From Neocallimastix lanati (nom. inval.) (Eukaryota > Neocallimastigomycota > Neocallimastigomycetes > Neocallimastigales > Neocallimastigaceae): a DNA stretch of 64,000 nt. Positions 5,771 to 63,114 of this stretch are shown here, in pieces. The notes below the pieces were generated by a model, which saw only the letters and a program-made list of their open reading frames with translations, was not told the origin of the DNA and did not search any database. The DNA is taken from the NCBI GenBank assembly GCA_016946835.1, contig JACVTC010000056.1:675001-739000 (forward strand), in the 5' to 3' direction. Positions within the stretch are counted from its first letter, which is position 1. Each line of letters opens with the position of its first letter. Made by a program: the position numbers and the translations under genes.

Positions 5771-8700
5771 TTAAAATAGACGTTGGAAAAATGTACCTAA
5801 GATGGTAAGAATAATAATGGTAATGAAAGATGGCTTCAATAAAGCAATGGCACCACTAACAGTACACTTTTCTGGATTATCTTCATCTTCCATACATTCG
5901 ACATAACCGAGTTGCTCCACGGAACAAATCTTCATTTCATCAGTTTCATCATCGATCTTGACATAGTTATTCACACAGACGAGATCGAATGAGGACATGG
6001 TTTCCTCAACATTGTAGGTACAGTTTGTGAAGACACCACTGACAGCTTCAAGGTAGTTCTTTCCACGAAGACTGACAATGGCAGTAGATTTATTATTCTT
6101 TTGAATGTCATCTACTGCTTGCTTAATCTCATCAGGGAATTCTTCTGTGAGGGCCAATGGGAAGTTGACAACGACGTTATCATCGTAGGAACAGTAACGA
6201 GAAACCACTGGAACGAGAAGAGAGCCGACTTCACAGCGGTAGTAGGCATCATCAATGTAGTAGTATTGTCCATTGACACAGTTTTGTTTGACACATTCGG
6301 TGGCTTCCAATCCTTCAGAATCATGGACACAAGAGAAGACTTCTCCGGTATTAGTGAAGTAGTAGCCCGATTCATCAATTGGCTTACATTCATCATCTTC
6401 TTGATCACAGTGATACATTTCATTATCGACAGTGTAGTAGTATCCGTAGTTAGCTTTACCTTGAATGATGATTTCATCACCCTTCTTAACAAACTTGTAG
6501 ACATAGGTGTTCGTTGGATCAATGGCAATGTAGGCATATCCAGAAGTACTTGGAGAAGACCAGACACCATTTTTGTATCTTAAGATGTTTCTGGCTTGAG
6601 CATCGTAGTAGTAGGTATCTTCATCAGGTTCGTAGACACGACAAGAAGAAAGGTTACATCCATAGACAACAATACTGTTGTTCTTATTCTTGTAGTTCTT
6701 ACTAACGACGGTGGTGTTGGTGGAGAGACTGATGATGTAGAAGCCGGTTTGATCGACCATTTCGGCAGCAAATTGGTTCATATGGTAGAGGTGTTGAGAG
6801 TATCCGTAGATGTAGTTATTGATGTTACCGGCACGATAACATTCACCCGTTTCACGGTTCTTAATGTCAGTGGTGGCAAGAACAATTTCACCCTTGTAGG
6901 TGATACAGAATTCTTGGTTCTTCAAATCAGCATTTGGAGTACATTTGTTGTTGGCAAAGATACAGATGATATCCTTTTCATAGGCAAAGGAGAAGACATC
7001 ATTATTTACATTGTACTTCAATATTCTCTTGTTGACATCAGCATAATAAGAATTGGCTTCTGGTTTATCGATGATGCTACAGCTACTTCCGTTACAGCGG
7101 TAGAGTTTGACATTTTCATCATTGTAGGCATCAATTTCATTGCCACTAACAAGTTCGTTTTTGGCGACATTAATGAAGTAGTAACCAGTTTCGTAGAATT
7201 GAAGGATACTACCTTGATCAAGAGTGTAAATGTTGGATCCGACAGTGAAGTACATATCACTGTAGGAATCGTTGACTTCAAGACAGTTAGAGTTGGTGGT
7301 AGTGTAGACATAGGTGGAGGTGACACCAGAAATGACATTTGGCTTAACAACGACGGTATCGGTAGCGAAATAGAAGACGGAACGATCACTGTTAGTACAA
7401 ATGTTACCAGCAGCAATAGAAGTAGTTGCAGATTTAGTCATGGCATATTCAAGGGTGATGTAACACTTGTTGTTGTTAAATTCACACATTGGAATGGCAG
7501 CTAATTCACTGGCGGAGAGGGCAGTACATTTACCGGCAACACAACGAATAATACCATAGGCATCATCAGAATTATCTCGTAAATTGATCCTCTTTCCATC
7601 TTTCTCCAAGTCACCATCATCACGTCCATGGACATTTTGAACATTTTGAGCGTTATCGGAACGTTTATTAAACGTGAGACCCTTGAGGGCACCTCTAAAG
7701 AAACCGTTCTTGACAGTGATAGTCTTACACTTATGACCCGCCTTACAACGAATTAAGACATTCGATAAGCTTGACATATAGAAACCATTATTGGTAGCTT
7801 CAGAAGAACAGGTGACGACATTACTATTTTGGACACAATTAATAATGGTGTTGCTACTTTCAGAGGAATCAGCATTATCATAGTAGTTAACGGTTGGAGT
7901 AAATTCAGCACAAGAAGTTGGACTGGTACATTGAATTAAAAGAGTACTGGTATGAGTGAGATAATATCCGGATTTAGCCTTGGCAACATTACATTTACCA
8001 CCCTTACATTCAATGATGGCATTATTTCTCTTATCAAATCCAGCATTGACATACTTCACCTTATTCTTGACTTGACTGTAAGAACAGTTAGTAGCCGTAG
8101 TACATTTTATGATACCATTGTTATCAGTATGACCGTGAGCGACATAATAACCGACTTCAGCAGCGACAGTCATACAATTACTATTATTACATTGAATTAA
8201 ACTGTTGGTAGTGGAGTCATAGCCACTGTTTTCGTAATAGGTAGAACTCTTTGGCTTTAGGCTGATACAATTTTCACCTTTTTCACATTGAATAATGTAT
8301 GGATGTTTAGTACCACTGGTGACACGATTACCATCGACCACATAACCAGTGAATGAAGCGTATTCCAAGTTACCTTCATTACAGAAGACAGCCTTGCGAT
8401 TTTCAGAATCAAACATGTAGGTATTTGAGGTACATCTTGGACGCATAGCACAGACCTTAGTAGATTCATTACAATCATAGAGTGAGATATCTGAGGTATC
8501 ACCACCTAAAGAATCGACTAATTTACCATTCTTATCGATCATGATGACACCACTTCTGTAGAAGCGATTAATGAAGTAACGAGAAATTTTGAATAAGGAA
8601 CCGGTTTCAGACCTTATACCTGGGAATCCATTACTTGGAATGGTAGCGAAGGCATAGGTATCATCCGATTTAGAAGCCGTAATGGCAGTACTGTTATTAG

Positions 8701-11700
8701 CAGTGAAGAATTTCAATTGACTATCTTCATAACAGTAGTTTCCTGGAACAGCTTTTTCAGCCAATGGACATGATTTGGTGTCTTCTTCCTCACACTCCTT
8801 TCCTTCCTTTTCACACTTGATAATTTTCTTTTCCTCATTACCGGCATTGGCATAGTAACCGAGATCGACTTTAACGGTACTACAACCTTCAGTGGAATCA
8901 CAAATGATGGTTTGATTGATTGACTTGTTGTAGCCACTATTCAAGTAGTAACCTTCGGACGTGAAGGCTGTGGTCAATGTACATTTTTCTTCTTCATCTC
9001 CTCTCTTTCTACGTCTTTCTGTTGCTGGTGCTGGTGGAGTGGATTTAATACATTTAATTAAACCATCGACATTATCACCATCCTTACCAATATAGTACAT
9101 TGGAACAGCAGCTGGAGTTTGTTTTGCACATTTCTTTTTGGAACAGAAAATAATAGCATTGGTTAAATCGGCACTTTCAGCATTGACATAGTACTCTACT
9201 TCCTTTTCTGAAGTAGCCAAACCAACACATCCATTATCAGAGGAACATTGAATTAATTGGTTATTGTCACCGGATTCAGAGTAGTTGGAATTGATGTAGA
9301 CACCTTCGGTGGTATCTGCTTCTGCCTTACAGGTACATTTCACAGTATCATCTTCAAGGGCACATTCAATGATATCATAATTCAATGGAGTTTCATCGAT
9401 ATCACCAGCATTGATATAGTATTCCTTACTTGTTTCCGTGGCAGCACTGGCCATCTTACTACAGGCATTCTTGGCACACTTGATTAATGGGACCTTGGCA
9501 TTATCAATAGTATTGCTATTGACATAGACCTGATATTGATCGGCCTTGTAGAGATCACAGGTGACGGCATCACCATCTCCGCTAGCACATTGAATAAGGG
9601 CATATTCAAATTTATCTTTACCTTCATTTCCTGAATTAAGGTAATAGTTTGGAGCAGGTGAGGATGAGGATTGTTCTTCAACTGTTATTGTATAAACTGT
9701 TGGATTTGCTTCTGTTTCTGGTGTTGCATCGGCTTCTCTTCTTTCTTGATTTGCAGTATCTATTGCAGATGGAGTTTCGCTTTCATCACCAAGGGTAACG
9801 GCAGTAGCTATACATCCATCAGTTTCTGAACAAATAATCAATTGATTATTTGGGTCGTCACTGTTACCGTTGAGGTAGACATCCCCTTCTTTTCCGTCAG
9901 TAATATCACAGGAAATGGATCCTACAGCGCCAGCTTTACCACTACTTTTTTTAAGGGAACATTTAATCAAGTCCAATTTGAGTTTATCACCGTCAGGTAG
10001 ATCTCCTCCATTAACAAAGAATTGAGGTTTGTTTGCTTCAGCGGTTGAGTTAGTCGCACTACAACCTGTACCACTTATACATGAAATAACGGTAGATGAA
10101 TCAAATGAATTGATATAAACCATTTTTTCTTCTCCATCTGCGGGTTCACAAATGATAGTACCATCGTCATTTGGAGAACATTTAATGAGATCACCGTTAA
10201 CGGGATCGTTGCCATCAGATTTCAAATCACTTGAATTCAAGAAGTATTGATATTTATCAGCCGTTGCCGTACTTGGAACAGCCATACATCCAGTGGAGGC
10301 ATCCTTACAAATAATAAGTTGCAGGTCAAGAGCATTGATATAGATATCTTTTGCTTCAGCTACGACTACTTCACATTTAATATCCGAACTTTCACATTTA
10401 ATTAAGGTATCGGTTAACTTTTCGGAATTGGAAGCTCCAGCATTAACATAGTATACAATTGTAGCTGTTTCACCCTCTGCAAAAGCAGCCTTTTCAGTAC
10501 AATCTTCATTGGTACATACAATAATTTGTAATGGAGTAGCTGAGTCGAAATTGGCATTTATAAAGACATCATTTTCCTTGGTTGTTAAATTGGTATCACA
10601 AGTTTTTTTATCATCAGCATCAGCAACACATCTAATAATTTCAGTTTTAGTGGCTCCGTCATAGTCCTTTCCTTCGCTGTTCGTATCGGCATTAACGTAG
10701 AATTCTGTCTTTTCGGTTGTTGCGGCACTTGCTGTTAAAGTACATGAACCTTCGGCAGTACATTTAATAAGATGATTTGCGTTATCCGCATTTTCGCCAA
10801 AGTTTGCATTCAAAAATACCTTCTTTCCTGGTACAGCCTTTAATTCTTCTTGAGTTACCTCAACACAACCAGTGTCATTATAACATTTAATAAGACTGCT
10901 GTCTGTTTCCTTACTAACATAGTATGCCGATGTAGTTCTAGTGGAACTGTTTAGGACAGAGGTACAACCAGGGGTGGTAAAGCAACGAATAATATTCTTG
11001 ACGTTATAGGAATCAATGTAAACATCCTTGTCTTCTGATGCGGTAATAGGTGAACATGGTGCCGATGCATTTGACAAATCACATTCAATTACTGCGTTTG
11101 CTAATATATTATCTGTGTCTGGTTCACCGTGTACGTAATGTTCCTTCACACCATCAACAGGAGTAGGATTCTTGAATAATTCACATTTTTCTGCTGTACA
11201 TTTGATAAGGTAGTTTACGGCATCCTTAGGAGCTTCACCATAATTACCATTAACAAAGAAGTTTTCTGTGGCAGTACCGGCAAGGGTAACGCTTTGAGCA
11301 GTACAAGTATTGGTGGCGGTACACTTTATTAAGTTATAACTGGCATTCGTACTATCGGTATAAGTTCCAGCATTGACGTAATATACATTAGCTGCAGAAG
11401 CAGCGGAAGGAGTACAAGCCTTACTGGTACCAGCACATATAATTATAGGATTAGCAGTGTCCGTTGCGATATAACCATTGAGATAGATGTCATTTTCGTT
11501 AATTTCTGCCACTGGAGTACAAGCCGTATTAGTACATCTAATTATTTTATTGGTATAAGCAGTGGTATCAGCGGCAACGGCAGCATTTCTGTAGAAGGCT
11601 GGCACATCAACAGCTCCAATTCCTGCATACGCTTCACATTTACTACTACATTGAATTAATAATCCAGTAGAGGCATTAATATAGATGTCATTAGCAGCAA

Positions 11701-14618
11701 CTCCAGTAGTAACAACTTCAGATGTAGCAACTAAAGCAGCAGCACCATTACCACGTCTTCTTGCTGTTGGAGCTGCAAAAGTGACTTTAATTAAAGTGTT
11801 GTTTATTCCAGTTCCAGCACCATTCACATAGTATTCAACATCACCGGCAGCTTGTCCTGTCTTTCCAAAGGGAACACATCCAGCAGCATCAGTACATTTA
11901 ATAAGATAGTTCACAGTATCAGTTCCATAATTTTTATTAATGAAGATTAATTCAGTGACGGGAGTTGTAATCGTTTGAGCTGTAGGTGTACAAGAGCCAT
12001 TACATACAATCAATGTATCCGTCAATTTTTGAGTTCCAGCTGCATTAACATAATATTCAATTGCTGATGTTGATCCAGCGCTTGGTTTTGCTTCACATTT
12101 TTTGTTACTACATATGATTAAATGGTTAGTATTATCACCGGCACCGCTAGCAATGTAATTAGCATTAATAAAGACATCATTTTCACTGGCATCAGCGGGT
12201 TCACAATTAGTTTCACATTTAATTAACAACTTTTTATAGTCGTTATCTGTTTCTACGGCGGCATTAACATAATAAGCAGGAGTTGTAGTGTTGGAAGGAT
12301 CAACACCAGTACAACCATCACTAGTACATTGAATTAACTTTTTATCGGTGGCATTATTGATATAGATGGCATTTTCAGCAGCTTGAGGTAGAATGGAACA
12401 AGAAACAGTAGTCGTACCGGTACATTTAATGATGGCATTCTTTAATTTATCGGTGTCAGGAACAGCATGAATATAGAAACCTTCGGTGACATCAGTGGCA
12501 GGAGCACAAGTTGATGCAGTGTCACATAAAATTAATCCAGAATAGGAAGGTGGCGTGGCGTCAGCTCTTGTTTTAGTGGTCGTTGTAATGAGTTTACTAG
12601 CATCAACATAATAACCAGTAGCTAAAGTGCCAGTTGGATTAGCACATGCTCTATCGTCCTTACATTCAATTAATTTGGCAAATTTATTTGATTCATCCTT
12701 ACTTCCTTGATCAATGAAATATCCAGTGACAGAATATGGTTTAGTTTCACAGACTGTCGTAGTACATAAAATTAATGGCTTTGGGGCAGTAGTGGAAGTA
12801 GCATCAGTTCCCGAATTTAAATAGTAACCCACTTCTCCTTTGGATGCTTTACATTTCGGACCAGTAGAATCATAGGTAATAAGAGCATTATCTATACTGG
12901 AAGCACCCGAATTGACATAAGTTTTATTTTCGGCACAAGTAGCCTTGGCACAACTATCATTTGTACAAGAAATAAGACCATCTGCAGCAGCACTTGGGAC
13001 GGCAGCATTCAAATAGGTAGTGTCATTGGTAGCGGTTTCAGCCGTACATTTAGTACCATCACACTTGATAAGGGCATCAGTTAAGCTGTTAGCGGCAGCG
13101 GCTCCATTGAGGTAGACAGAACCAGCCGCTGGGGTACTTGTACTTGTATCACATGAACCAGCGGTGGCACAAGTAATGACTTTGGTGTAAGTAGTGACGT
13201 TTTGAGTAGTTGATTTTGTACCAGCATCTAAAAAGATACCTGTGGAAGTTGTATCCTTATCACATTTATTTTGTGTACCGTCACATTTAATTAAAGTCTT
13301 AGCATTGTTTTCACCATCAATTAAAAAGTAATCATTGGCGACGGCATCGGTGGCGTCACAGCTATCGCTATCACAAATAATCATGGCCTTCGTTAAACCG
13401 GAGGCCGCTGAATTAAGGTAGATTTTACCATCGGTACCACCCGTGGCAGAACATTTATTAGTGGCACAGGTGATGAGTTCATCTGTACCAAATGTTTTTT
13501 TGTTGGCATTGACAAAGGTAACATCCGTAGCAGTAGCAGCACCAGAAACACATCCAATTTTGCCATTAGCGTCTTTTGTACATTTAATGAGATTGGTGTG
13601 ATCGGTGGTTGTAGTTTCATCTTGAGTATTAGCATCCAAGTAGACTCCTTCATCAGTAATTTCCTTTTTTTCACATTTACTATCACATAATATGAGTTGT
13701 TTGGTGTCCTTGTCACTACCGCTGTTAGTATAGTAACCCGCCACCGCCGTTTTAGCTTCACATTTATCGCCAGATTTACAAACAATAATGGCATTGTCAA
13801 GACCTGAGGTGACCGCAGCATTCAAGTAAACGGCATCCGCCAAAGCCACGACATCACAACCTAGTGTACCGTCCGTTGTTTTGCATTCCAAAACATTCTT
13901 ATAATTACTAGCATAGGTGTTTCCATCTAAATAGACATCGCCTTCAGTAGGAGTGACAGCGGAGGCTTTCTTTTGATTGTCAACCTTGAATAAGAGGGTG
14001 GTGGCGGCGACATTGGATCCCTCATTTTTATAGTATCCTTCTGTTTCAAGAAGGGTACATTCCCCAGAAGTACATTTAAATAATTTCTCTTTACCGCTTG
14101 CTTCATTTAAATATTGAGTAAGGGTGGTCTCCAGTGTCAACTTAGTACCAGATTCAGTATATTTATAAAGGTATAATTTATCATCAGCTGCTAAGGTGGA
14201 ATAGTCATATTCTAAACATGTTCCTGTTGATGGACATTTATAAACATAATAGCCAGCGGTTGTTATGGATTTTGGAGCACATGATGAACTAGTACTTTCA
14301 TATAATACATCATCAATAAGACATAATCCTGTAAAATCTGTAGCCGGATCACCAGTAGTACATGCTGGGTTCGTAGCATCTGCAGCAGGAGCTGAACATG
14401 TCGGTATACCTATAGATAAAAGTAATTATTATCATTATTAATTATTTTTTTTTATATTCAATAAATGTATATAATTAAACAAATAATTTATTAATTATTA
14501 ATAATATTTTTTTTATTTAAAAAAAGATTTTTAATATTTCTATCTATATATCTATTTATTATTATGAGTCATACCTGAAGCTGATATTCTATTAGCAATG
14601 AAGAGTAATCCTAGAAGT
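5771..14618 (-). CDS. Gene A: giant secreted Cys-rich repeat protein, candidate scaffoldin (ScaA-like)
   Basis: Two supported exons: 14575-14618 (hydrophobic signal core, LLGLLFIANRIS) and 5771-14409, joined by a 165-bp GT-AG intron in matching phase. With an inferred 5-nt start exon (15194-15198) the product is about 2,895 residues. The large open frame has no ATG near its upstream end, because the true N-terminus is spliced. After the signal comes a Cys-rich head (C...YESTSSSC), then dozens of ~30-35-residue units: aromatic pair, N-x-G, L-I-x-C, second Cys. The non-repeat C-terminal block (about residue 1,900 on; DNA ~5771-9000) is nearly shared with genes B and C. The end is S-G-A plus a hydrophobic tail, suggesting a GPI or membrane anchor. 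Dibasic runs sit at ~9000-9015, 9733 and 11755. Repeats, secretion and anchoring fit my memory of gut-fungal cellulosome scaffoldins, which bind dockerin-bearing enzymes. Adhesin or other wall protein is the alternative. Confidence 0.88.
14410..14574 (-). other. Intron of gene A between signal exon and main exon
   Basis: On the minus strand the donor is GTATGA at 14574 and the acceptor is TATCTATAG ending at 14410. Splicing joins the last G of the signal exon to GT of the main exon, giving a Gly codon and keeping the frame. Homologous introns in B (48610-48986) and C (62937-63058) sit at the same place with the same phase. Confidence 0.85.
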
Positions 14619-14701: not shown

Positions 14702-14702
<1 letters not shown>

Positions 14703-14784: not shown

Positions 14785-14786
<2 letters not shown>

Positions 14787-15412: not shown

Positions 15413-17251
15413 AATAATATATTAATTATATTTTTTTTAATTTTTTTCAAATTCTCATTAAAATTTTTAGTGTTTTTAAAATGTTGTAGATTATTTCAAA
15501 CGCATTATTTAAATTTTAAAATATTTTTAAAAATGGAATTTTAAATTATTTCATAATAATTAAAATACATTTTATTGGATAAAATCTGTTTATTAAAATG
15601 TATTTTATTTTTATTTTATTTTTTAAAAGAATTAAATTTTTAAATCTTTTTATATTAAAAAAACGTTTTGTATTTAAAAAATTGTTCATTGGAAGTTTAT
15701 ACATTATAAAATTAATGTTACGTAATTTAAAAACTAGTTTATACAAAGTTAAAATGTACTTTATATTTAGTAAATTTTATTATTGAAAGGAAGTTTAGTT
15801 TGTATATAAAAAAAAAAGAATTTTTGCATTTAAAAAAAAAAATTATTATTTTGTATATTAAAAAATTTTTTTTGTATTTAAAAAGATATTCATTGAATAA
15901 ATATATTTAGCATTGGAAAAAATATTATTATTTTATGAAGTTGTATTTTATATTTTTAGAGAAATATTTATTAAATTAAGCAATGTTTACATTTTTAATA
16001 TATAATTATTTATTTATTGAATTTGAAAAAAAAATTATTGGATAAAAAAAATATTATTCATTACAATTTTATTATTATAAAAATTATGTTTAATTTGTGG
16101 CTCTAAAAATTTTAAGAATATAAAATTTATTCTTTTATTTTAATTTAAAATTGATTATGTGGCTGAAATATTATCACGTGTTTCAATCACCGTTTTTTTT
16201 TGTTAATTTTATTGTAAATATTTATCCATTTCTTTAATTTTTTATCCATTGAATTAAATCTGAAAATTCTTTAAATTTTATTTTTTCATCCATTCATTTT
16301 AATAATAATTAAAAAAAAAAAAATAATTATTTTTTTCTTTTTATGATAACCTACCTATAAAATTTCCAACCCATTTTTTTTCTCTAGTTATAAAATGAAA
16401 TTGTTGGAAATTTTTTTACTTTTTTTTTTATTATTGTTGTCTTTTATATTTATTTGTTTGTTATAAATGATTATATATTCTTTATTGTTTGAAATATATT
16501 ATTTTTTTGTTTATAAATTCAAAAAAATTTTTTTTTCTTTTTTTCTATTCAATATTATATAATTTTTATTAAATTATAAAAAAAGAAAATCAAAACAAAA
16601 AAGTTTCTTTTTTTTTATTATTATTTTTAAATATTTATAAATTTTGTTTAGCTTTTAAAAATTATTTTTTTTGTTTTTGTTATTTTTTCTTTTTTTTTTA
16701 ATTTAATAAAAATTTTTTTATCTTTTGTAAAATAAAAATTCTTTTTTTCTTTTTTTTTTTTTTTCAATGTGAAAAGTTATCTTTAAATAAAAAAAAATTT
16801 AAAATAATTTTTTTTTCATTTCTAAATTAAAAAAAATAAAAAATAATTAATAATTAAAAAAAGTTTATTTTTATTTTATTTTTTTTTTTTTATATATTAT
16901 TTTTTAAATTTAAAAGTTAACTTGTTTTTTTTTTTTTTTTTTAATTTTTTTTTTAATTTTTTTTTTTAATTAATCCTCAACATAAACAAAAATAAATTTA
17001 ATTAAAAAAAAAAAAAAAATCACAAATAAAAATTTAAAATTATTTATTTCTTTTTTTTTTTTTTTTTTTTTTTTTATAAATTAAGAATCACCTTTTATTA
17101 CATGAAAAATATTAAATATATTAGAATGGTAGTAAATAAAAATGTGTTATTAAACTAAATAATTTTAAAATAATGTAAAATAATTTAAAGTTAGATAGTT
17201 ATAATATATTTTTATATTTAATTTTTATTATATTGAATACTTAAATTTCAT
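15413..17251. other. AT-rich spacer upstream of gene A
   Basis: No supported gene. Small open frames overlapping on both strands near 15546-15786 are Lys/Ile/Phe-rich and fit chance in A/T-rich DNA. Homopolymer tracts are dense, especially 16500-17080. The only structured signal is the inverted repeat at 16360-16413, listed separately. GTGGCT motifs occur near 16096 and 16160. Confidence 0.6.
16360..16413. promoter_or_regulatory. Inverted repeat AAATTTCCAAC / GTTGGAAATTT
   Basis: Perfect 11-bp arms (16360-16370 and 16403-16413) around a 32-bp spacer, about 1.2 kb upstream of the proposed start of gene A. A related imperfect pair with the same TTTCCAACC core lies at 50222-50277, about 1.2 kb upstream of the signal exon of gene B. 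The recurrence at matched positions suggests a regulatory site. Confidence 0.4.
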
Positions 17252-20070: not shown

Positions 20071-20327
20071 TGTTATTAGTGTCAAATTAATTAAATATAC
20101 TTTAAATAAATTAAATTATATTATTTCTTTATTATAATTTATCTCTTTGTATTTGAAATACATTTACATATTCATTGTTAAAATTATTTCATTGTATTAC
20201 TAATAAGCCACAATTAGTATAAAAAGAAAATCTTTTCATACATTTTTTAGCATCGTAATTACCAAAACAAATATATTAATAAATATACTTTAATTAATAA
20301 TAAAACGTTTTATCTAATTTATTTTTA
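20071..20327 (+). repeat. 5' LTR of the copia element
   Basis: Starts TGTTATTAGTGTC and ends TTTTTA. It holds an ATAAGCCACA box at 20203-20212 followed by AGTATAAAAAG (TATA-like) and differs from the 3' LTR at only a handful of positions. It does not end in the usual CA. Confidence 0.9.
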
Positions 20328-22757: not shown

Positions 22758-22779
22758 GCAGCAAAATTCAAGTGGGATA

Positions 22780-32330: not shown

Positions 32331-32369
32331 CTACTGAAGAATTAGTGAAGAAATATTACTCTACTTGGA

Positions 32370-33090: not shown

Positions 33091-33135
33091 TCAAGTTGTT
33101 AATAATACTTCATACTACAAAAAAAAGACTTCTAC

Positions 33136-42700: not shown

Positions 42701-43370
42701 TTGATATAGAATGCAGGGACCGTACTTGTTCCTGTACTGGCAAATTCTTTACAACCATTAGTACCTTTATCAATACATTGAATTAACTTGCTTGTATCAT
42801 TATTGATAAATATGGAATCCTTATCTTTATCTTCGACTAATGTTTTTACTTGACAGGCAACATTTGTACCTTCACCTGTACATTGAATTAAGGATTCAGT
42901 AAATTTATCTGTAGTAGTAATGGCATTGATATAGAAACCGGCTTTTGGAGATGGATATAAAGTACATACTGGTGGAAGATTATTGTTATTTTCATCCTTT
43001 TCAACAGTACATTTAATTAATTTGGAATAGGTAGTCACTGCTGAAGTTCCATCTGCTTGAGTAGTAGTTTTTGCTGAGCTAGCATCTATATAAAATCCTG
43101 GAAGGATAGATGCAGAGGCGAGAGAGGTACAGACACCATCATCGGTTGGACAACTAATTAATTTAGCATAAGAAGTGGTAGCAGAGGTTGTTGTCTTCGT
43201 GGCTGGTGTGCTACCTCTTCTTCTACTGGTAGTAGTAGTGACAGTTTCACTTCCGGAATCTACATAGTAACCCTTAACACTAGCGATGGTTTCACAGTCA
43301 TCACCATTACAATGAATGATTTGATTTTTGCTACTGGCAGCTCCATTGTAATTAATGAAATATCTTTCAC
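36727..43370 (-). CDS. Gene B, last exon: repeats, C-terminal block, anchor
   Basis: The acceptor CTTTTAG precedes GT GAA AGA, so the exon opens inside a repeat unit (GERYFINYNG) and lacks the N-terminal head present in A and C. This is why it must be spliced to upstream exons. It carries dozens of repeats, a Pro/Glu-rich linker before RRR (about 39960-40020), the non-repeat block starting CPLAEKAVPGNYC near 39690, and the tail FITIIILTLIGTFFQRLF. Confidence 0.85.
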
Positions 43371-43700
43371 CTAAAAGTCCGTATTTAAGTATATATAAAT
43401 ATATAAACAAATTAATTAGAATAGCGATGTTTAAAAGATAAGATTAAATTAATAAATAATAGAACAAAAAAAAAAAAAAAAAAAAGAAATATAAGGTAAA
43501 AAAAATTATAAGAGATTAAAAAATTAAATTTATAAAAAAAATATATATTTTTTAATATCTGATTTAAAAAAGAAATAATAATAATAACAAACCATAATAT
43601 CATTAAAATTTAATACTAATTCATTTATTATTATTATTATAATTATTATTATTATTAACATTAAAATTATTATTAATACTATTATTTTATATTGAAGTAC

Positions 43701-43735
<35 letters not shown>

Positions 43736-43759
43736 TACTATTATTTCACATTGAAGTAC

Positions 43760-43821
<62 letters not shown>

Positions 43822-43904
43822 ACTATTTTTAATATTATTTAATATTATTATTGCTATTATTATTATTATTATTTTGTATTGTTTTATTAATTACTCAAAT
43901 TAAT

Positions 43905-43944
<40 letters not shown>

Positions 43945-46900: not shown

Positions 46901-48929
46901 TTTACCTGTAGAATCTAATCCAAAAACAGTAGCATCGTTGCATGAGGTAATTGCGCTAAGAGCTCCATTCTCAAGAAGAATGACACTTCCATCACTGTAA
47001 AGCTTGACATGAGCAGTTGAACTGGCAGTAGTACCAGGGAAATCATTATCTGCAGTAATGGTGAGGGTTAAAATTTGTTCCGTAGCTCCGGTTTTAATTT
47101 CTACGGCATCGGTAGTTCCTGAGGATATACAGAGTTTTACTTTTCCATTATCAATTATGTATTTACCAACAGTACAAGTAGTACCAGTCGGATCAGTAGC
47201 TTCTGAACATGTATCACCAGCACATTGAATGACGTGTTTCGTAGAGGAATCCTTTCCAGAATTCACAAAGTAGCCGTTCAACGAGACATCTTCATAGTGA
47301 CAACCTTCTGTGTTGGAGGTACAAGTGATAACTTTAGGATTAGAGGAGGCGGCTTGAAGATAATGTTTTGGAGAGGTGTCCGTTGCTCCGTGAAATTTCG
47401 ATTCACAAGTGGTACCGGTACTTTCAATGATTTTTGATTTATTTGAGGCATCAATTTCATATCCAGCGGTAGAAGCAGTTGCAGAAGTACAACCAGTGGC
47501 ATCACAGGTAATAATATTGGTCGTCTTTCCAGTAGCGTCGAGGACACCTGAATCCACATAGGCCCCAACGGTGGATGGATTTTCGGCCTTGGCACAACGG
47601 TCGGCATCACATTCAATTAAGAATTTATTGGTGGTAGTGGCTTTATCATCATTGAGATAATACTGTCCTTCGGATGCAGGATTTGCAGAACAGTTAGTAC
47701 CATCGCATTTAATTATTGATTTTGTTGTTCCTGAATTTAATAAAATAGTACTGGCAGCAGCTGCTGTAGCCGTACATGAGTTTGTATTAGAAGAGGACTC
47801 TTTTTTACAAAGTAAATATTTCGTATATTTTCCTGGATTTGTGGAGTCATAATTTCCTTGATCCAAATAGTAGAAAATACCTTCTTCCGCAATTACTTGA
47901 GCTGTACAGGCCGTCGCTGTACATTGAATGTATGGCTTGGTGGTACTGTCACTTCCGGCATTGGCATAGTATTGATTGGCATTGGCAGGACTGGCAACAC
48001 AAGAACTAGCAGTGGAACATACAATAACCCCTTGAGTCCCTGAATTGACAAAGACACCAGCTGTAGCAGCGGCAGAACTACATGTAGATGCATCAGAACA
48101 AGTAATTATATTAGTATAAACATTACTACTATTAGTACTTTCATCCAAATAATAGGTTCCAGCAGTAACCGTTGAAATTGGAGTGACCGTCGATCCTTCT
48201 ATCTTTATTAATAAAGTGCCAGCGACGGCATTAGTATTTGTTCCTACAGTATAATATCCAGGGCTGGTCTTTTGTGCACAACCGCCCGATGTGGCACATA
48301 TAACTAATTTATTATTGCCTATATAGGTATAATCCGATTTAGCAGTAGCTTCACCATTTTCAGCAATACCATATACTAATAAAGTTTTTGAGTCTTCAAT
48401 AGTATTACTACAGGTTGTAGGATTACTATCATTGTCACATGAAAAAATATAAGCCCCTGCTTGCTTTATTTGTGTACATGATCCTGATCCAGCTGCTGTT
48501 CCAGTAGATTCATATATCTTACTACTCTCTATACAGTATGTAGCTATATTTAGACTACCACATGGATCATTGGTACTTTCTGTAACACCAGTACCACATG
48601 AAACCAAATCTATAATTATTTTAATTTTAAAAAAATAATAATAATAATTGAAATAACAAATAAATATTAATAAATATTAATAATATTAAAATAATAATAA
48701 AAATATACAATTTTTAGTAATAAAAAAAAATATATTTAAATAAATAAAAAATAAATAAATAAATTACATAAAATAAAATTAAATAAATAATTATATTCTT
48801 GTTTTAATAATAGTAATAATAAAAAAATATATTTTATTAAAGAAAAATAAACAAAATAAGAAATATAAAATTTCCTTATCTTTCCAAAGTAATAATTAAA
48901 ATAAATTATATAAATATAAATAATAAATA

Positions 48930-48969
<40 letters not shown>

Positions 48970-49042
48970 AAAATAATAAAAATTACCTGCTGAAACAGAT
49001 GATATTCCTAGCCGACTAACCAAGAATAGCAAGCTAATATTT
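36727..49042 (-). CDS. Gene B: giant secreted Cys-rich repeat protein, candidate scaffoldin (ScaA-like), at least four exons
   Basis: Exons 48987-49042 (signal core, SLLFLVSRL), 46414-48609, 43966-45003 and 36727-43370. All junctions are GT-AG in phase 1, so the three large open frames, none opening at an ATG, splice into one product of about 3,312 residues if exon 1 adds five bases as proposed for A. The second exon holds the mature head (C...IYEST...C) and repeats. The second and third exons each end in a homologous ~260-residue non-repeat module, and the last exon holds most repeats plus the C-terminal block and hydrophobic anchor. Basic runs occur at about 43220, 42088, 41612, 40368 and 39965. 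Gene B is nearly identical to C in the last ~1,000 residues but diverges in the middle. Secretion and wall or membrane display are inferred, and the scaffoldin role is a hypothesis. The start exon was not found. Confidence 0.8.
43371..43965 (-). other. Gene B intron 4 (595 bp)
   Basis: Donor GTAAAA at 43965, acceptor CTTTTAG ending at 43371, phase 1 on both sides (G joined to GT gives Gly). It contains poly(T), a TTA microsatellite (43625-43880) and a 23-nt A run. Confidence 0.75.
43625..43880. repeat. (TTA)n-type microsatellite in a gene B intron
   Basis: ATT/TTA runs including a ~60-bp uninterrupted stretch and a duplicated TTGAAGTACTATTTATTATT segment (about 43694 and 43752). Confidence 0.9.
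43966..45003 (-). CDS. Gene B, third exon: repeats plus non-repeat module
   Basis: 1,038 bp, a multiple of three, phase 1 at both ends. It opens with GLLTVGFQINA-type repeat sequence and two repeats. A non-repeat module of about 260 residues follows (KVGIIYESSAVKLC ... DGVFPDTT ... KCNGWKGEKCEV ... NKVCFS), homologous segment by segment to the end of the preceding exon (HVKLYSDGSVILLENG, QCSGWKKEGC, NKVCFN). Because the exon is symmetric it could be duplicated or skipped without a frameshift. Its frame opens at GTG, not ATG, which argues against an independent gene. Confidence 0.75.
45004..46413 (-). other. Gene B intron 3 (1,410 bp, minisatellite-filled)
   Basis: Consensus donor GTAAGT at 46413 and acceptor CATTAG ending at 45004. 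The join A + GT keeps phase 1. Between about 45190 and 46260 it is almost entirely TATTTATTATATATTTACTATT-type repeat DNA. The length is unusual for a fungal intron, so repeat expansion is likely. Two separate genes would be the alternative, but neither flanking exon has a start or signal peptide of its own. Confidence 0.6.
46414..48609 (-). CDS. Gene B, second exon: mature N-terminal head, repeats, non-repeat module
   Basis: 2,196 bp, a multiple of three, phase 1 at both ends. It starts with the Cys-rich head DLVSCGTG ... KIYESTGT ... C shared with the main exons of A and C. About a dozen repeat units (GYYxNxG ... IxC ... C) follow, then the FPG-containing module that recurs in the next exon. 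The open frame runs nine bases past the donor to a TAA (46406-46408) created by the intron sequence. Confidence 0.8.
48610..48986 (-). other. Gene B intron 2 between signal exon and second exon
   Basis: Donor GTAATT at 48986, acceptor AATTATAG ending at 48610. A ~39-nt poly(A) run lies near 48932-48963. Same position and phase as the introns in A and C. Confidence 0.8.
48987..49042 (-). CDS. Gene B signal-peptide exon
   Basis: 56 bp in phase with the next exon, encoding a hydrophobic stretch NISLLFLVSRLGISSVSA with a plausible signal-peptidase site after Ala. Its length equals that of the corresponding exon in gene C. The exon with the start codon was not found. Confidence 0.75.
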
Positions 49043-54315: not shown

Positions 54316-57300
54316 TTAGAACGAGCTGAAAAGTATAGAAAGCACCATTCCAATAGCAAGAAGTATGATGGATGGCTTCAATAAAGCGTTAGCTCCACTA
54401 ACAGTACACTTCTCTGGATTTTCTTCATCCTCTATACATTCAACATAGCCAAGTTGATCGACGTTACAGATCTTCATTTCATCGGTTTCTTCATCAACTT
54501 TGACATAGTTATTCACACAGACGAGATCGAAAGTGGATTTGGTTTCTTCGACGTTGTAGGTACAGTTGGTGAAGATACCACTGACGGCTTCAAGGTAGTT
54601 CTTTCCACGACGAGTGACAACGGCAGTAGAATTGTTGTTTCTTTGAATGTCATCAACCGCCTGCTTAATCTTATCTGGGAATTCCTCCGTGAGGGCCAAT
54701 GGGAAGTTGACAACGACGTTATCATCGTAGGAACAGTAACGAGAAACAACTGGAACAAGAAGAGAGCTGACTTCACAGCGGTAGTAGGCATCATCAATGT
54801 AGTAGTATTGTCCACTGACACAGTTTTGCTTGACGCATTCGGTGGCTTCCAATCCTTCAGAATCATGGACACAAGAGAAGACTTCTCCGGCATTGGTGAA
54901 GTAGTAGCCAGTTTCATCAATTGGCTTACATTCACCATCTTCCTGATCACAGTGATACATTTCATTATCGACGGTGTAGTAGTATCCGTAGTTGGCTTTT
55001 CCTTGAATGATGATTTCATCACCCTTCTTAACAAACTTGTAGACATAGGTGTTCGTTGGATCAATGGCAATGTAGGCATATCCAGAAGTACTTGGAGAAG
55101 ACCAGACACCATTTTTGTATCTTAAGATGTTTCTGGCTTGAGCATCATAATAGTAGGTGTCTTCATCAGGTTCGTAGACACGACAGGAGGAAAGGTTACA
55201 TCCATAGACAACGATACTGTTATTCTTGTTCTTATAGTTCTTACTGACGACAGTGGTGTTGGTGGAGAGACTGATGATATAGAAACCAGTTTGATCGACC
55301 ATTTCAGCAGCAAATTGGTTCATGTGGTAAAGGTGTTGAGAATATCCGTAGATATAGTTATTGATGTTACCGGCACGATAACATTCACCAGTTTCACGGT
55401 TCTTAATATCGGTGGTGGCAAGAACAATTTCACCCTTGTAGGTGATACAGAATTCTTGGTTCTTCAAATCAGCATTTGGTGTACATTTGTTGTTGGCAAA
55501 GATACAGATGATATCCTTTTCATAGGCAAAGGTGAAGACGTCATTATTCACATTGTACTTCAAGATTCTCTTGTTGACATCAGCATAGTAAGTGTTGGCA
55601 TCTGGTTTATCAATGATGCTACAGCTACTTCCGTTACAGCGGTAGAGTTTGACATTTTCATCATTGTAGGCATCAATTTCGTTGCCACCAACAAGTGTGT
55701 TTTTGGCGACATTGAGGAAGTAGTAACCAGTTTCGTAGAATTGAAGGACACTACCTTGATCAAGAGTGTAAATATTGGATCCAACAGTGAAGTACATATC
55801 ATTGTAGGAATCGTTGACTTCAAGACAGTTAGAGTTGGTGGTAGTGTAGACATAAGTGGAAGTGACACCAGAAATGACATTTGGCTTGACAACGACGGTA
55901 TCTGTGGCGAAATAGAAGACGGAACGATCACTGTTTGTACAAATATTACCAGCAGCAATAGAAGTGGTAGCCGATTTAGTCATGGCATATTCAAGGGTGA
56001 TGTAACACTTGTTATTGTTAAATTCACACATTGGAATGGCAGCTAATTCACTGGCCGAGAGGGCAGCACATTTACCGGCAACACAACGAATAATACCATA
56101 GGCATCATCAGAATTATCTCTTAAATTGACCATCTTTCCATCTTCCTCCAAGTCATCATCATCACGTCCATGGACATTCTGAACATTATGAGTATTATCG
56201 GAACGTTTATTCGAAGTGAGACCCTTAAGGGCACCTCTAAAGATACCATTCTTGACAGTGATGGCCTTACACTTATGACCAGCCTTACAACGAATTAAGA
56301 CATTCGATAAGCTAGACATATAGAAACCATTGTTGGTGGCTTCAGAAGAACAAGTGACCACATTACTGTTTTGGACACAGTTGATAATGGTGTTGCTGCT
56401 TTCAGAGGAATCGGCGTTGTCATAGTAGTTGACGGTTGGAGTAAATTCAGCACAAGAAGTTGGACTGGTACATTGAATCAAAAGAGTACTGGTATGAGTG
56501 AGATAATATCCGGATTTAGCCTTAGCAACATTACATTTACCACCCTTACATTCAATAATGGCATTATTTCTCTTATCAAATCCAGCATTGACATATTTGA
56601 CCTTATTCTTGACTTGACTGTAAGAACAGCTTGTAGCCGTAGTACATTTTATGACACCATTATTATCAATATGACCATGGGCGACATAATAACCGACATC
56701 AGCAGCGACTGTCATACAATTACTATTATTACATTGAATTAAACTGTTCGTAGTGGAGTCATAGCCACTGTTTTCATAATAGGTGGAACTCTTTGGTTTG
56801 AGGCTAACACAGTTTTCACCATTTTCACATTGAATAATGTATGGATGTTTAGTACCACTAGTGACACGATTACCATCGACAACATAACCAGTGAATGAAG
56901 CATATTCCAAGTTGCCGTCATTACAGAATACAGCCTTGCGATTTTCAGAATCAAACATGTAGGTGTTTGAAGTACATCCTGGACGTTCAGCACAGACCTT
57001 AGTAGATTCATTACAATCATAGAGTGAGATATCTGAGGTATCACCACCTAAAGAATCGACTAATTTACCATTCTTATCGATCATGATGACGCCACTTTGG
57101 TAGAAGCGATTAATGAAGTAACGAGAAATCTTGAATAATGAACCCGTTTCAGACTTAACACCTGGGAATCCATTACTTGGAATGGTAGCAAAGGCATAGG
57201 TATCATCCGATTTAGAAGCCGTAATGGCAGTACTGTTATTAGCAGTGAAGAATTTCAATTGACCATCTTCATAACAGTAGTTTCCTGGCACAGCTTTTTC

Positions 57301-60300
57301 AGCCAATGGACATGATTTGGTGTCTTCTTCCTCACATTCACTTCCTTCCTTTTCACACTTGATAATCTTCTTTTCATCATTACCTGCATTGACATAGTAA
57401 CCGAGATCAACTTTAACGGTACTACAACCTTCTGTCGAATCACAAATAATGGTTTGATTGGTTGACTTGTTGTAACCACTATTCAAGTAGTAACCTTCTG
57501 AAGTGAAAGCTGAGGTCAACGTACATTTTTCTTCATCATCTCCTCTCTTTCTACGTCTTTCAGCTGGTGGTGGAGTGGATTTCACACATTTAATTAATCC
57601 ATCGACATTATCACCATCTTTACCAATATAGTACATTGGAACAGCAGCTGGGGTTTGCTTTTCGCATTTCTTATTGGAACAGAAAATGATGGCATTTGTT
57701 AAATTGGCACTTTCAGCATTGACGTAGTATTCCACTCCCTTTTCAGCAGTGGCCATACCAACACATCCATTGTCAGAGGAACATTGAATTAATTGCTTAT
57801 TGTCACCGGATTCAGAGTAGTTGGAATTGACATAGACACCGTCATTGGTATCAGCTTCGGCCTTACAGGTACATTTAACAGTATCTCCATCTAGGGCACA
57901 TTCAATGATATCATAATTCTTTGGAGTTTCGTCAATATCACCAGAGTTAATATAGTATTCCTTACTCGTTTCAGTGGCAGCACTGGCAGTCTTACTACAG
58001 GCATTCTTGGCACACTTGATCAATGGGACCTTGGCATTATCAATAGCATTGCTATTGACATAGACTTGGTATTGGTCGGCCTTGTAGAGATCACAGGTGA
58101 CGGCATCACCTTCTCCGTTAGCACATTGAATAAGGGCATATTCAAATTTATCTTTACCTTCATTACCTGAATTAATATAATAGTTTGGTGCAGGTGAGGA
58201 TGAGGATTGCTCCGAAGTTGGTGTTGTGGTTGATGTTGCTGTTGTGGTTGTAGTTGTTGTAGTAGTGGATGGATCGGATCTTTTTCTCGCTGGAGTGGTT
58301 GCAGCTGCTGTTGCAGATGTTGTTACAGATGGAGTTCCAGATGGAGTTGCACTTCCGTCACCAAGAGTAACGGCAGTAGCTACACATCCATCATCTTCTG
58401 AACAAATAATCAATTGATTTGAGGCGTCGTTACTGTTACCATTGAGGTAGACATCACCTTCTTTACCATTAGTAATATCACAAGAAATGGATCCTTCAGA
58501 GTCAGCTTTACCACTACTCTTTTTGAAGGAACATTTAATCAAGTCCAATTTGAGCTTATCACCGTTAGGTATATCACCATCATTAACAAAGAATTGAGGT
58601 TTATTTTCTTCAGCGGTTGAGTTGGTAGCACTACAACCTGTACCACTTACACAAGAAATAACTGTTGATTTATCGAATGAATTGATATAAACCTTTTTGT
58701 CTTTTCCATTAGCTGGTTCACAAATTCTAGTATTATTGACATCTGCAGAACATTTAATGAGATCATCGGTAAGAACTTCTTGACCTGTTGTTTTTAAGTC
58801 ACTAGAGTTCAAGAAGTATTGATATTTCTCATTCGTTGCTGTATTTGGAACGGCCATACATCCGGTGGAGGCATCCTTACAAATAATAAGTTGCTTGTCA
58901 AGTGCATTAATATAAATATCTTTTTCTGTAGCTTCGGCCACTACACATTTATCGGTTTTGCTAGCACATTTAATTAAGGTATCCGTTAATTTTTCGGAAC
59001 TAATGGCACCAGCATTAACATAGTATACAGTGGTTGCTGTTTCACCATCTGCAAAAGCAGCCTTTTCAATACAATCTTCATTGGAACATACAATAATTTG
59101 TAATTGAGTAGTTGAATCGAAATTGGCATTTATAAAGACATCATTTTCCTTAGTTGTTAAATTGGTATCACAAGTTTTTTTACCATCAGTATTAGCAATA
59201 CATTTAATAATTTCAGTTTTAGTGGCTCCATCATAGTCCTTATTTTCTTTATTTGTATCGGCATTAACATAGAATTCAGGATTGGTGGCTGTGGCCGCGC
59301 TTGCTGCTAAAGAACATGCTCCTGTAGCATCACATTTAATAAGATGTTTTTCGGCATCAGCATTTTCGCCAAAGTTTGCATTCAAAAATACCTTCTTTCC
59401 TTCTACAGCCGTTAATTCGTCTAGAGTTACCTCAACACAACCGGTGTCATTGTAACATTTGATAAGGCTTCCGCTTGTTTCCTTACTAACATAGTAGGCT
59501 GATGTGGTTCTAGTAGAACTGTTAAGGACAGAGGTACAACCAGGGGTGGTAAAGCAACGAATAATATTGTTGACATTATAGGAATCGATGTAGACATCCA
59601 AGTTCGTTGCAGCAACAGGGGTACATGCTGCAGATGTAGTTATTTCACATTTAATTACTGCATCGGTTAATTTAGTTGTTGCATTTGGTTCACCATGGAC
59701 GTAATATTCAGTCGTACCCGAAGCAGAAGAAGGATCCTTCTTGTAAGGTTCACATCCATTGCTGGTACATTTAATAAGGTAATTTTGGGTGTCTTTCGCA
59801 GCATTGGCGTTGATATAGAAATTTTCGGTTACGCCTGTAGCTAATGTGGCGTCTCCAGGTGAACAAGTAACTGGTGAACCTGTACATTTAATTAAAGCCG
59901 ATATAGTTTTATCAGTAGCATCTGAATCTACTCCACCATTGATATAATAATTAGTAGCGGAAGCGGTATCTGCTAAAGTTTCACATTTACCATCATAGCA
60001 AATAATTAATTGTTTTTCGTCAGTACTATTGGGATTATCTGTTCCTTTAAGATTAGCATTCAAATAAACCTTGAATTCACCGGCTTCGGTAAGTACACAT
60101 TCGGCGTCGGTACAACGAATTAAAAGATCGGCATAGCTGACGGTTTCATCTCTACGAGCAGCGGCTGGGGCAAAGCTTCCCGCTTTTCCACCGTTGACAT
60201 AGAATGCAGGAACGGTACTGGTTCCTGTACTGGCAAATTCTTTACAACCGTCAGTATCATCTTTACATTGAATTAATTTATTGGTATCATTATTGATAAA

Positions 60301-63114
60301 GACCGAATTTGCATCTTTACTAGCATTCAAATCCTTTAATTCACAGGCAATGCTTTCCCCTTCACCTGTACATTGAATTAAAGATTTTGTTAATTTAGGA
60401 GAACCTGGATTGGCATTGATATAGAAACCAGCGGAAGGAGTATCGAAAAGTCCACATTTCAAATTCTCAACACATGTAATTAATCCTGAAAAAGTTGCAG
60501 TGGCCGTACTTCTTTTTGTAGGAGGAGTAGTAGGAGTAGCAGCAACTTTAGTATCTTCATTAATATAATAGCCCTTAACAGCAGTTACAGTAGTATTATC
60601 ACAAGTAGTAGTAGCTGTACAGGTAATTAATTTAGCGAATTTATCACTACTCTCTTTACTTCCATAGTCAAGGTAGACTCCAGTGGTTACTTCGGCTACA
60701 GCAGTGACACACTTATCGGTACATTTAATTAATGGATTGGAAGTTCTGTCACTACCAGAATTTAAATAATAACCTTTATTGTCACCAGATTCCTTAGTAC
60801 AAGTAACAGTAGGATTAGCAGGATCAGTCCTACGTGTGGAGGTAGAGCCTATACATTTAATAAGCGCTCCCTCTAATCCGGTTGTGACGGCTGCATTAAC
60901 AAAGATATTACCGCCTGCTGGAACTATTGATGTATTTTCACAGGTAAGATCAGTAGCCCCTTGAGCAATTGTACAAGCAATAATAGCCGTGTAGGTACCC
61001 GCGGCACCATTGGCACTTTCAGTGAAGGTACTACCATCAAGATATTGACCAGCAGTGTTGACCTTTACATCTTGACAACCTTCCGCTGTGGTACATTTAA
61101 TCAGTTGAACATTGGTATCCGAATTCAAATAGTATTGTTCATTTTTGGCTGTGTCCGTTGTACAGGTGAGAGAACCAGAACCACCTGTTGGGGTTGCACA
61201 TTTAATAAGGGCATTGGTTAATCCGGAAGTGACGGCTTTATTAATATAGGTTGCACCTTCTGTAGGAGCTAATGTATTATTACAAGTCGTTGGATCAGTA
61301 GCGGCAGTACCAGCCACACAGGAAATTAATTTAGTTGAGGCGCCATTGGCATCTTGAACACTGCCATCAAGATAAACACCAGCCACACCAGGATTTGAAT
61401 CACATTGGACTGTATTAGTACCACTCTTTGTACAAGTAATTAAATTTTTATAGGTGACAGGATTTGCCGTAGTAGCTGAACCGGCATCCAAATAGACACC
61501 TTCTGTGGCTTCGGAGTTACAGGTACTGACAGCAGAACATTTAATGATTGGCTTTGCGGCGTTATCTACGCCACTATTCAAATAGACCGCACCTGCGGCA
61601 CCTTCAGCGCTCGTACAACCCGTCGTGGTACATGTGATGACAGAGCCATATTTTTCAGCAGTTGATTGTGCAGCATTGGCAGCAGTATAAGTACTTTTAT
61701 CAAGATAGGCACCCGATGTCACTGTATCTGAATCACATTCTACTTTATCATTATTCGTAGCACAAGTAATTAAATTGGTATAAGAGGGAGGAGTTGTTGC
61801 AGGAGTTACAGCTGAACCAGCATCCAAATAGACACCTTCTGTGGCTTCTACGGTACAACTTGAGGCAGTACAATTAATGATCGTCTTATCCCCAGCACCA
61901 TTGATATATGCTCCTGCTGTAGTAGTGGCGGGAATTTCACAAAGTACAGGAGAAGAAGCATCTGCTTTACTACAAGTAATCAATTTGGTATAAGAGGCAG
62001 GATCTGTTGCAGGAGTTGCAGCTGAACTGGCATCTACAAAGACACCTTCTCCTGCTGGAGAGGAACTACATTCGACGTTTTGACCATTCGTAGAACAAGA
62101 AATTAAACTTTTATATTTAGTACTTTCGACACTACTTTCATCTAAATAATAACCGCTGGTACTGGGGCTGGCTTCATCGGCACAACCGCTACTAGTACAT
62201 TTAATTAAACCTTTCGTTCCTGCATTGGCATAATACTTACCATCTGTACCACCAGTCGCAGTACATGAACTTGTGGTAGTACAATTAATTAAACCATCGT
62301 TAGTTACAGTAGTCGAAGTTGAACCAGCATTAATATAAATACCAGTGGCCGTAGGAGCGGCGGCCGTACAAGTAGGAGAGGCATTGGCTTCAGAAGATTT
62401 GGTACATGTAATTAATTGACTATAGGTCGTACCCGATAGACTTTCACTATCAAGATAATAGGTCGTTCCTACTGCAATGCTAACTTCAGAAACCGTAAGT
62501 GATCCTCCACTAGTGGCCACATTCACTAAAGCCAAAGTATTAGAATTAGAATTAGAGCCATCAACGACATAATTACCATCCGTTGCTGCGGTACAGGCCC
62601 CGGTAGTACACTTATATAATCTTTTTGTTGAACCACTATCATAATAGTAAGTTTTTGGGTTTTGTGTTACTCCTGAAGCGGTTACTTCATATACTAAGAT
62701 ACTTCCAGTATAGGCACTAGCATCTTTACAACCATCAGCTTCAGTACATTCAAACAAATAAGTATTAGCTGCTTGTTTTGCACAAGAACTGCTTGTTGAT
62801 TTATATATTTCAGTTTTCGCACTATTTATACAGTATACACCATCTCCAAATGTTTCATTTGGTGTTGATTTATTACAAGCTGCAGAGGTACTTTCTGGAG
62901 TATCCTGTCCTGTTTGATTTAAACAAGTAGGTAATTCTAATTTATAATATCACATTCATACAATATTTATTTATTAGTTTTTTTTTAAAAAAATTTAATA
63001 TAAAATTTATATTTATTTATGTAAACCTATTTATATTAAAATCATAATAAATAATTACCAGTTAGATTAGCCTTTACATTTGCAAAACAATAGAGTGAAA
63101 GCAAGCCAAAAAGC
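54316..63114 (-). CDS. Gene C: giant secreted Cys-rich repeat protein, candidate scaffoldin (ScaA-like)
   Basis: Exons 63059-63114 (signal core, LFGLLSLYCFANVKA) and 54316-62936, joined by a 122-bp GT-AG intron in phase 1. The product is about 2,893 residues if a short start exon as in A exists. The Cys-rich head (LPTCLNQ ... EIYKSTSSSC) is followed by dozens of repeats (YY-N-x-G ... L-I-x-C ... C). A Thr-rich linker with a run of eight Thr lies at about 58230-58265. The non-repeat block from CPLAEKAVPGNYC near 57290 is almost identical to that of B. The last ~20 residues (IILLAIGMVLSILFSSF) are unrelated to the tails of A and B. Basic runs lie at about 57545, 58275, 60157, 60510 and 60828. 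Middle repeats match A, while more N-terminal ones match B. Role as for A: anchored extracellular repeat protein, possibly a cellulosome scaffoldin. Confidence 0.87.
62937..63058 (-). other. Gene C intron between signal exon and main exon
   Basis: Donor GTAATT at 63058 and acceptor TAAATTAG ending at 62937. The join G + AA gives Glu, and the frame runs from the signal core into ELPTC. Confidence 0.85.
63059..63114 (-). CDS. Gene C signal-peptide exon
   Basis: 56 bp, acceptor TGGTAG just upstream. It encodes LFGLLSLYCFANVKANLT, a hydrophobic core with a plausible cleavage site after VKA. An upstream exon must supply the start. No ATGAA followed by GT was found between 63115 and 64000. Confidence 0.75.

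What the first reader, a model, noticed from the sequence alone, without database searches (positions are those of the whole stretch)
5771..63114. Array of three giant anchored Cys-repeat genes, possible cellulosome scaffoldin cluster
Seen: three same-strand paralogues of about 2,900-3,300 residues, each with signal core, Cys-rich head, dozens of aromatic-N-x-G / L-I-x-C repeats, a shared C-terminal block and a hydrophobic tail. Known from memory: gut-fungal cellulosomes use very large repeat-bearing, membrane-anchored scaffoldins (ScaA). Inference: this window could be a scaffoldin locus, with repeats serving as docking units for enzyme dockerins. A clustered arrangement would make dosage and repeat-number evolution visible at one site.
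Basis: partly seen in the sequence, partly recalled or inferred. Interest (0 to 1): 0.75.

Follow-up and report, generated by a model that had tools for sequence, protein, structure and literature searches.

The report
Gut-fungus cellulosome scaffold gene array
Three neighbouring giant genes of a rumen fungus encode already recognised scaffold proteins of the fungal cellulosome, and they sit in an unusually dense genomic neighbourhood of such genes.

Summary
It holds three same-strand paralogues of 2,900, 3,318 and 2,899 residues, each with a signal exon, 36-40 N-terminal repeats, a ~990-residue C-terminal block with 8 more, and a hydrophobic end. Gene 2's C block is 100% identical to a protein named 'scaffoldin' in Neocallimastix sp. 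'constans'; 20 of 120 listed relatives bear that name. The scaffoldin reading is supported. That each repeat docks an enzyme was not tested.

New detail: (1) a fourth copy lies beyond the window, and 30 of 50 full-length scaffoldin ends counted in the genome lie on four contigs, 1.6% of it. (2) AlphaFold2 predicts a three-stranded beta unit with paired cysteines in 12 of 12 complete repeats folded; no confident PDB match. (3) The tail resembles a GPI signal. (4) A dibasic site sits in a disordered linker in 44 of 45 relatives where the linker was found. Known family, informative locus.

The parts
5771..14409 (-). Gene 1, main exon (repeat array plus C block); protein 2,900 aa
   Evidence: Open frame without stop; spliced model; 97% over 2,773 aa to P0006
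14575..14618 (-). Gene 1, signal-peptide exon
   Evidence: Reads LLGLLFIANRISAS between AG and GT
16355..16374 (-). Gene 1, putative start exon (MGWKFYR)
   Evidence: 20 of 27 bases match the start exon of genes 2-4; frame joins the signal exon; weaker than for the others
5771..8743 (-). Gene 1, conserved C-terminal block (990 aa)
   Evidence: Marker motif and near-constant length in relatives
36727..43370 (-). Gene 2, exon 5 (repeats plus C block)
   Evidence: 98.4% over 2,220 aa to P0004, named scaffoldin
43966..45003 (-). Gene 2, exon 4
   Evidence: 93% to P0004 residues 751-1096; P0004 crosses the junctions on both sides in the predicted place
46414..48609 (-). Gene 2, exon 3 (Cys-rich head and repeats)
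   Evidence: 82% to P0004 residues 28-750; GT-AG
48987..49042 (-). Gene 2, signal-peptide exon
   Evidence: NISLLFLVSRLGISSVSA as in P0004
50220..50242 (-). Gene 2, start exon (MLGWKYLR)
   Evidence: Only match in the window at up to 3 mismatches, none in 100 shuffles
36727..39699 (-). Gene 2, conserved C-terminal block (990 aa)
   Evidence: AlphaFold2 model of the 1,063-aa end, pLDDT 82.2, pTM 0.56
45004..46413 (-). Gene 2, intron 3, AT minisatellite, 7% GC
54316..62936 (-). Gene 3, main exon (repeats plus C block); protein 2,899 aa with its start exon outside the window
   Evidence: 91% to P0005
63059..63114 (-). Gene 3, signal-peptide exon
   Evidence: RLFGLLSLYCFANVKA, as in P0005
54316..57285 (-). 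Gene 3, conserved C-terminal block (989 aa)
58069..59700 (-). Gene 3, repeat stretch folded here (544 aa)
   Evidence: AlphaFold2 pLDDT 82.6, pTM 0.77; 12 of 12 complete units with three strands, counted by eye on the printed strand string
7661..7666 (-). Gene 1, dibasic KR in linker of C block
38617..38622 (-). Gene 2, dibasic KR in linker of C block
   Evidence: linker pLDDT under 50
56203..56208 (-). Gene 3, dibasic KR in linker of C block
5771..5863 (-). Gene 1, GPI-signal-like tail
36727..36819 (-). Gene 2, GPI-signal-like tail
54316..54405 (-). Gene 3, GPI-signal-like tail

Best explanation
A tandem group of scaffoldin genes (ScaA-like) of the fungal cellulosome. Each protein is secreted (signal exon, shown by sequence), carries a long row of about 36-40 N-terminal repeats, and ends in a conserved ~990-residue block with a C-terminal signal for surface attachment (sequence shown; attachment inferred, GPI-like). 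The repeat is predicted as a three-stranded beta unit with one cysteine pair. Most likely the repeats are the docking sites on which dockerin-bearing enzymes assemble, while the C block holds the protein at the cell surface (both inferred). More repeats mean more enzyme seats (inferred). A dibasic site in the flexible linker of the C block may let a Kex2-type protease release or trim the scaffold (inferred). The confidence given is for membership in the fungal scaffoldin family; for docking by the repeats I would give about 0.55.
For: 20 of 120 listed relatives named scaffoldin, one 100% identical over the C block. Dockerins abundant in the genome. Length varies by N-terminal repeat number (rho 0.83 in the 68 of 123 proteins with the marker) while the part after the marker stays at a median of 989 aa. 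Structure models. Tails: the 119 of 123 proteins with an NxxKC motif before a tail of 15 or more residues have tails of 27-55 residues, all hydrophobic, median 2 residues and median 0 K/R after the hydrophobic window. Dibasic linker: 44 of 45 found linkers against a shuffled mean of 14 and maximum of 23. Published, read in passages: >500-kDa repeat-rich fungal scaffoldins bind recombinant dockerin with KD 994 nM, and mass spectrometry found ScaA in the P. finnis cellulosome (PMC8262932); N. lanati has 93 (PMC8665504) or 98 scaffoldins (PMC12341934).
Against: No binding was tested. PMC8262932 (passages) says a conserved fungal cohesin remains elusive and that its anti-ScaA antibody bound no cellulosome protein on blots and gave no specific staining. 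No Pfam family matches at E<=1, so there is no domain-level support for a cohesin. The GPI reading differs from the published wording 'membrane-anchored' and 'transmembrane anchors'. The four N. lanati relatives with a source name (P0008, P0012, P0013, P0014) are annotated only 'hypothetical protein'.
Confidence: 0.88

Rival explanations
1. They are cell-wall adhesins or glucan-binding surface proteins: the hairpin repeats hold the fungus to plant or fungal wall polysaccharide and carry no enzymes.
Confidence: 0.15
2. The C-terminal block, not the repeats, binds dockerin; the repeats are a passive spacer.
For: The C block is the conserved part: 95-100% amino-acid identity in four windows although 13-22% of four-fold sites differ between genes 1-3; it is kept in short scaffoldins of about 1,400 aa.
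Against: One block per protein gives few seats for a large complex; the block itself holds 8 of the same repeat motifs, so both may bind.
Confidence: 0.25
3. The cluster is partly an assembly artefact or two haplotypes of one locus.
For: C511 and C212 are collinear and 90% identical over 11.5 kb; several contig ends fall in scaffoldin sequence.
Against: The three window genes differ too much from each other (four-fold sites 13-22% in the C block, N-terminal thirds 22-47% identical) and each has its own closest relative elsewhere (P0006, P0004, P0005).
Confidence: 0.05

Closest known systems
Fungal scaffoldins / ScaA of Neocallimastigomycota (Haitjema 2017, known here only through citing papers)
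   Same: Size class, repeat-rich make-up, signal-type start, C-terminal anchor-type end, sequence: P0004 100% over the C block; P. finnis scaffoldins P0041, P0044, P0054 at 71-73%
   Different: Nothing that excludes membership. Details added here: GPI-like tail, three-stranded repeat model, dibasic linker, dense genomic grouping
Bacterial scaffoldins with type I-III cohesins (e.g. CipA; recalled)
   Same: Works like: a large non-catalytic backbone with repeated modules and surface attachment
   Different: No Pfam match of any kind at E<=1, so no cohesin or SLH domain; not a member
Choline-binding / glucan-binding hairpin repeat proteins
   Same: Aromatic-rich hairpin repeats; weak local fold match of the C block
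   Different: Three strands and a cysteine pair per unit in the repeat model; TM at most 0.25; no Pfam match

Membership tests
Fungal (ScaA-like) scaffoldin | Sequence homology to annotated fungal scaffoldins | tested here: met
   134 relatives at E<=0.001, 120 listed, 20 named scaffoldin in five gut-fungal taxa
Fungal (ScaA-like) scaffoldin | Very large, repeat-rich | tested here: met
   2,900 / 3,318 / 2,899 aa; 48 / 44 / 48 repeat motifs. By residue count smaller than the >500 kDa quoted for ScaA-type proteins
Fungal (ScaA-like) scaffoldin | Secretion-type N-terminus | tested here: met
   Judged by eye: basic start and hydrophobic core encoded by two short exons, as in P0004 and P0005; no signal predictor was run
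Fungal (ScaA-like) scaffoldin | Hydrophobic C-terminal anchor-type sequence | tested here: met
   Present in all three; anchoring itself not shown
Fungal (ScaA-like) scaffoldin | Binds fungal dockerin | not testable with these tools
Fungal (ScaA-like) scaffoldin | Dockerin-bearing partners in the same genome | tested here: met
   150 of 150 scored PF02013 matches over cut-off, out of 1,440 candidates
Bacterial cohesin scaffoldin | Cohesin domain | tested here: not met
   0 Pfam families at E<=1 in the three main frames and 0 at E<=0.01 in gene 2 exons 3 and 4
Choline-/glucan-binding repeat proteins | Same solenoid fold | tested here: inconclusive
GPI-anchored fungal surface proteins | C-terminal GPI signal (small residues, spacer, terminal hydrophobic run; recalled) | tested here: inconclusive
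   Layout present in the 119 of 123 tails measured; the small-residue test used was lenient and no trained predictor was run

The most novel reading that the evidence does not exclude
Scaffoldins are concentrated in one or a few dense neighbourhoods (30 of the 50 full-length C-terminal ends counted, on 1.6% of the assembly), where tandem copies keep an anchoring block under strong purifying selection while their repeat arrays diverge in number and sequence: a repertoire generator for cellulosome backbones, comparable in layout to contingency gene families, with the proteins GPI-anchored and released by a Kex2-type cut in the C-block linker.
Probability: 0.35. Interest if true: 0.62.

Novelty: new member of a known kind. 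Interest (0 to 1): 0.42.

Why it matters
How gut fungi hold hundreds of dockerin enzymes is open: a 2021 paper read in passages calls a conserved fungal cohesin elusive (PMC8262932). A locus with several complete giant scaffoldins, a fairly confident repeat model and clear unit borders gives concrete constructs to test, and the grouping gives a place to watch repeat number change. [quoted passage not shown]
Full report
OBSERVATION. The window is very AT-rich outside the genes (down to 3.5% GC in 2-kb steps), with no tRNA and no Rfam match at gathering score. Splice models: gene 1, exons 16374-16355, 14618-14575, 14409-5771 (2,900 aa); gene 2, exons 50242-50220, 49042-48987, 48609-46414, 45003-43966, 43370-36727 (3,318 aa); gene 3, start exon outside the window, then 63114-63059 and 62936-54316 (2,899 aa). 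The four gene 2 introns are GT-AG, and the related protein P0004 crosses the last two junctions in the predicted place. The start exon ATGTTGGGTTGGAAATATTT(G/A)AG|GTAA is shared by genes 2 and 3 and a fourth gene beyond the window; gene 1 has a weaker version. Motif counts are far above shuffles. No transcript evidence was available.

SOURCE. The window is C511:675001-739000 of its genome. C511, C212 and C75 are 1,066,414, 1,513,079 and 344,419 bp, the same lengths as the contigs of proteins P0008, P0012 and P0013/P0014, which NCBI names Neocallimastix lanati. I take the source to be N. lanati, an anaerobic gut fungus (taxonomy). The held genome has 199.05 Mb in 762 contigs against 200.97 Mb in 970 published (PMC8561657, passages). 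The species is inferred from the contig lengths.

IDENTITY. With the last 1,048 residues of gene 2 as query, 134 proteins were found at E<=0.001 and 120 listed (only the 7,978 candidates sharing most words were scored); 20 of the 120 bear the name scaffoldin (Neocallimastix 'constans', N. californiae, Piromyces finnis, Piromyces sp. E2, Anaeromyces robustus), the rest have no functional name. P0004 (constans, 3,314 aa) is 98.4% identical over the last exon of gene 2, 93% over exon 4 and 82% over exon 3; gene 1 is 97% identical to P0006 and gene 3 91% to P0005. Each window gene thus has its own counterpart elsewhere. No Pfam family matches the three main frames at E<=1, and the main frame of gene 2 matches no PDB sequence meaningfully (best E 0.93). 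Published counts put 93 or 98 scaffoldins in N. lanati (PMC8665504 and PMC12341934, passages), so these genes belong to a recognised, counted family.

ANCHOR AND LINKER. In 119 of 123 proteins the motif NxxKC precedes a tail of 27-55 residues (median 29) that ends in a hydrophobic run with a median of 2 residues and a median of no K/R after it. That is the layout of a GPI signal (general knowledge), whereas a membrane-spanning anchor normally has a cytoplasmic tail. In the C block a linker with pLDDT under 50 (residues 430-465 of the model) carries KR or RR in 44 of the 45 proteins where my pattern found the linker, against a mean of 14 and a maximum of 23 in 300 shuffles. Relatives are not independent, and 78 of 123 proteins were not captured by the pattern; still, a Kex2-type site (recalled) is a fair hypothesis.

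EVOLUTION. Between genes 1 and 3, four-fold sites differ at 27% (43 of 159) in three windows of aligned repeats with 70-77% amino-acid identity, and at 17% (52 of 299) in four windows of the C block with 95-98% identity: the C block is under strong purifying selection, the repeats much less. The very end of the block is less conserved (77-87% in the last 128 columns). N-terminal thirds are only 22-47% identical and alignment there is unsure.

NEIGHBOURHOOD. A fourth scaffoldin lies just past the window (86% to gene 1 over 2,590 aligned residues; incomplete because part of the flank reads N). Contig C212 carries a collinear group in opposite orientation (90% over 11.5 kb, which includes one whole intron of gene 2 and most of another). 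With the last 357 residues of the C block as query, the genome search listed 103 matches (114 of 136 candidates scored, so a lower bound). From that list I counted 50 matches over 330 or more residues (one with a stop inside) and 8 split or partial loci, leaving out secondary short matches in the same genes and short relics with stops. 30 of the 50 (33 of 58) lie on C511, C212, C75 and C102, 1.59% of the assembly, where 0.8 of 50 would be expected; counted as clusters, 21 of 43. The contigs were chosen after seeing the result and two are collinear, so the nominal p-values (4e-41, 1e-26) overstate the case, though the effect is large. Scaffoldin sequence is also found at 5 of 8 ends of these contigs (two of the five slight), so the assembly may break inside such genes. 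Among the 150 dockerin matches listed I saw none on these four contigs (about 2.4 expected by length, so not significant). Three P. finnis scaffoldins share one contig length of 269,528 bp and two A. robustus ones 98,910 bp, which suggests grouping in other genera too. Retroelement remains (integrase, RNase H-like) lie between and beside the genes.

MECHANISM. Shown by sequence: secretion-type start, repeat array, conserved end, terminal hydrophobic tail. Predicted: repeat fold, disordered linker. Inferred: repeats seat dockerins, tail gives a GPI anchor, linker is cut. Published and read in passages only: repeat-rich fungal scaffoldins bind recombinant dockerin with KD 994 nM, ScaA was found by mass spectrometry in the P. 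finnis cellulosome, yet a conserved fungal cohesin remains elusive and the anti-ScaA antibody failed on native material (PMC8262932). Haitjema 2017, the founding paper, was not seen.

VERDICT. The family is known, so novelty is modest; the added value lies in complete gene models, a repeat model, the anchor and linker hypotheses and the genomic grouping, for which searches gave no report (one search was not usable; the library is limited).

Noticed in passing
G000 C212:966459, 274700, 614390, 670161; C102:225375, 58553, 5506; C75:6219; C511:801470; C320:17800; C415:3001; C154:3921: A second giant scaffoldin class: 12 places 62-66% identical to the query end, 10 of them in open frames of 3,253-3,264 aa, the other two in frames of 1,081 and 443 aa; contig ends match its likely relatives P0063/P0064.
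   Followed up: partly
C511:~701-761 kb and C212:~702-745 kb: Two largely collinear, inverted regions, 73-90% identical in matched pieces: diverged haplotypes or a segmental duplication.
   Followed up: partly
window 818-1546 (-), 22201-22758 (+), 32349-33729 (+): Remains of LTR-type retroelements (integrase, RNase H-like, SH3-like matches, several under the Pfam cut-off) between and beside the scaffoldin genes.
   Followed up: partly
P0061: A scaffoldin relative (58% over the C block) is filed under a Methanosphaera stadtmanae MAG: probably a fungal contig binned with the archaeon (inference).
   Followed up: no
window 43371-46413: Gene 2 introns 3 and 4 hold AT minisatellite, TTA arrays and homopolymer runs (7% GC for the 1.4-kb intron 3) between exons of 37-40% GC.
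   Followed up: partly
window 43966-48609: Exons 3 and 4 of gene 2 are less conserved with P0004 (82%, 93%) than exon 5 (98.4%), a gradient from N- to C-terminus.
   Followed up: no
window 2092-2990, 18573-20086, 26024-27774: Long AT-rich stretches translate into repeated IYYLLF-like frames on the minus strand; they look like minisatellite, not genes.
   Followed up: no
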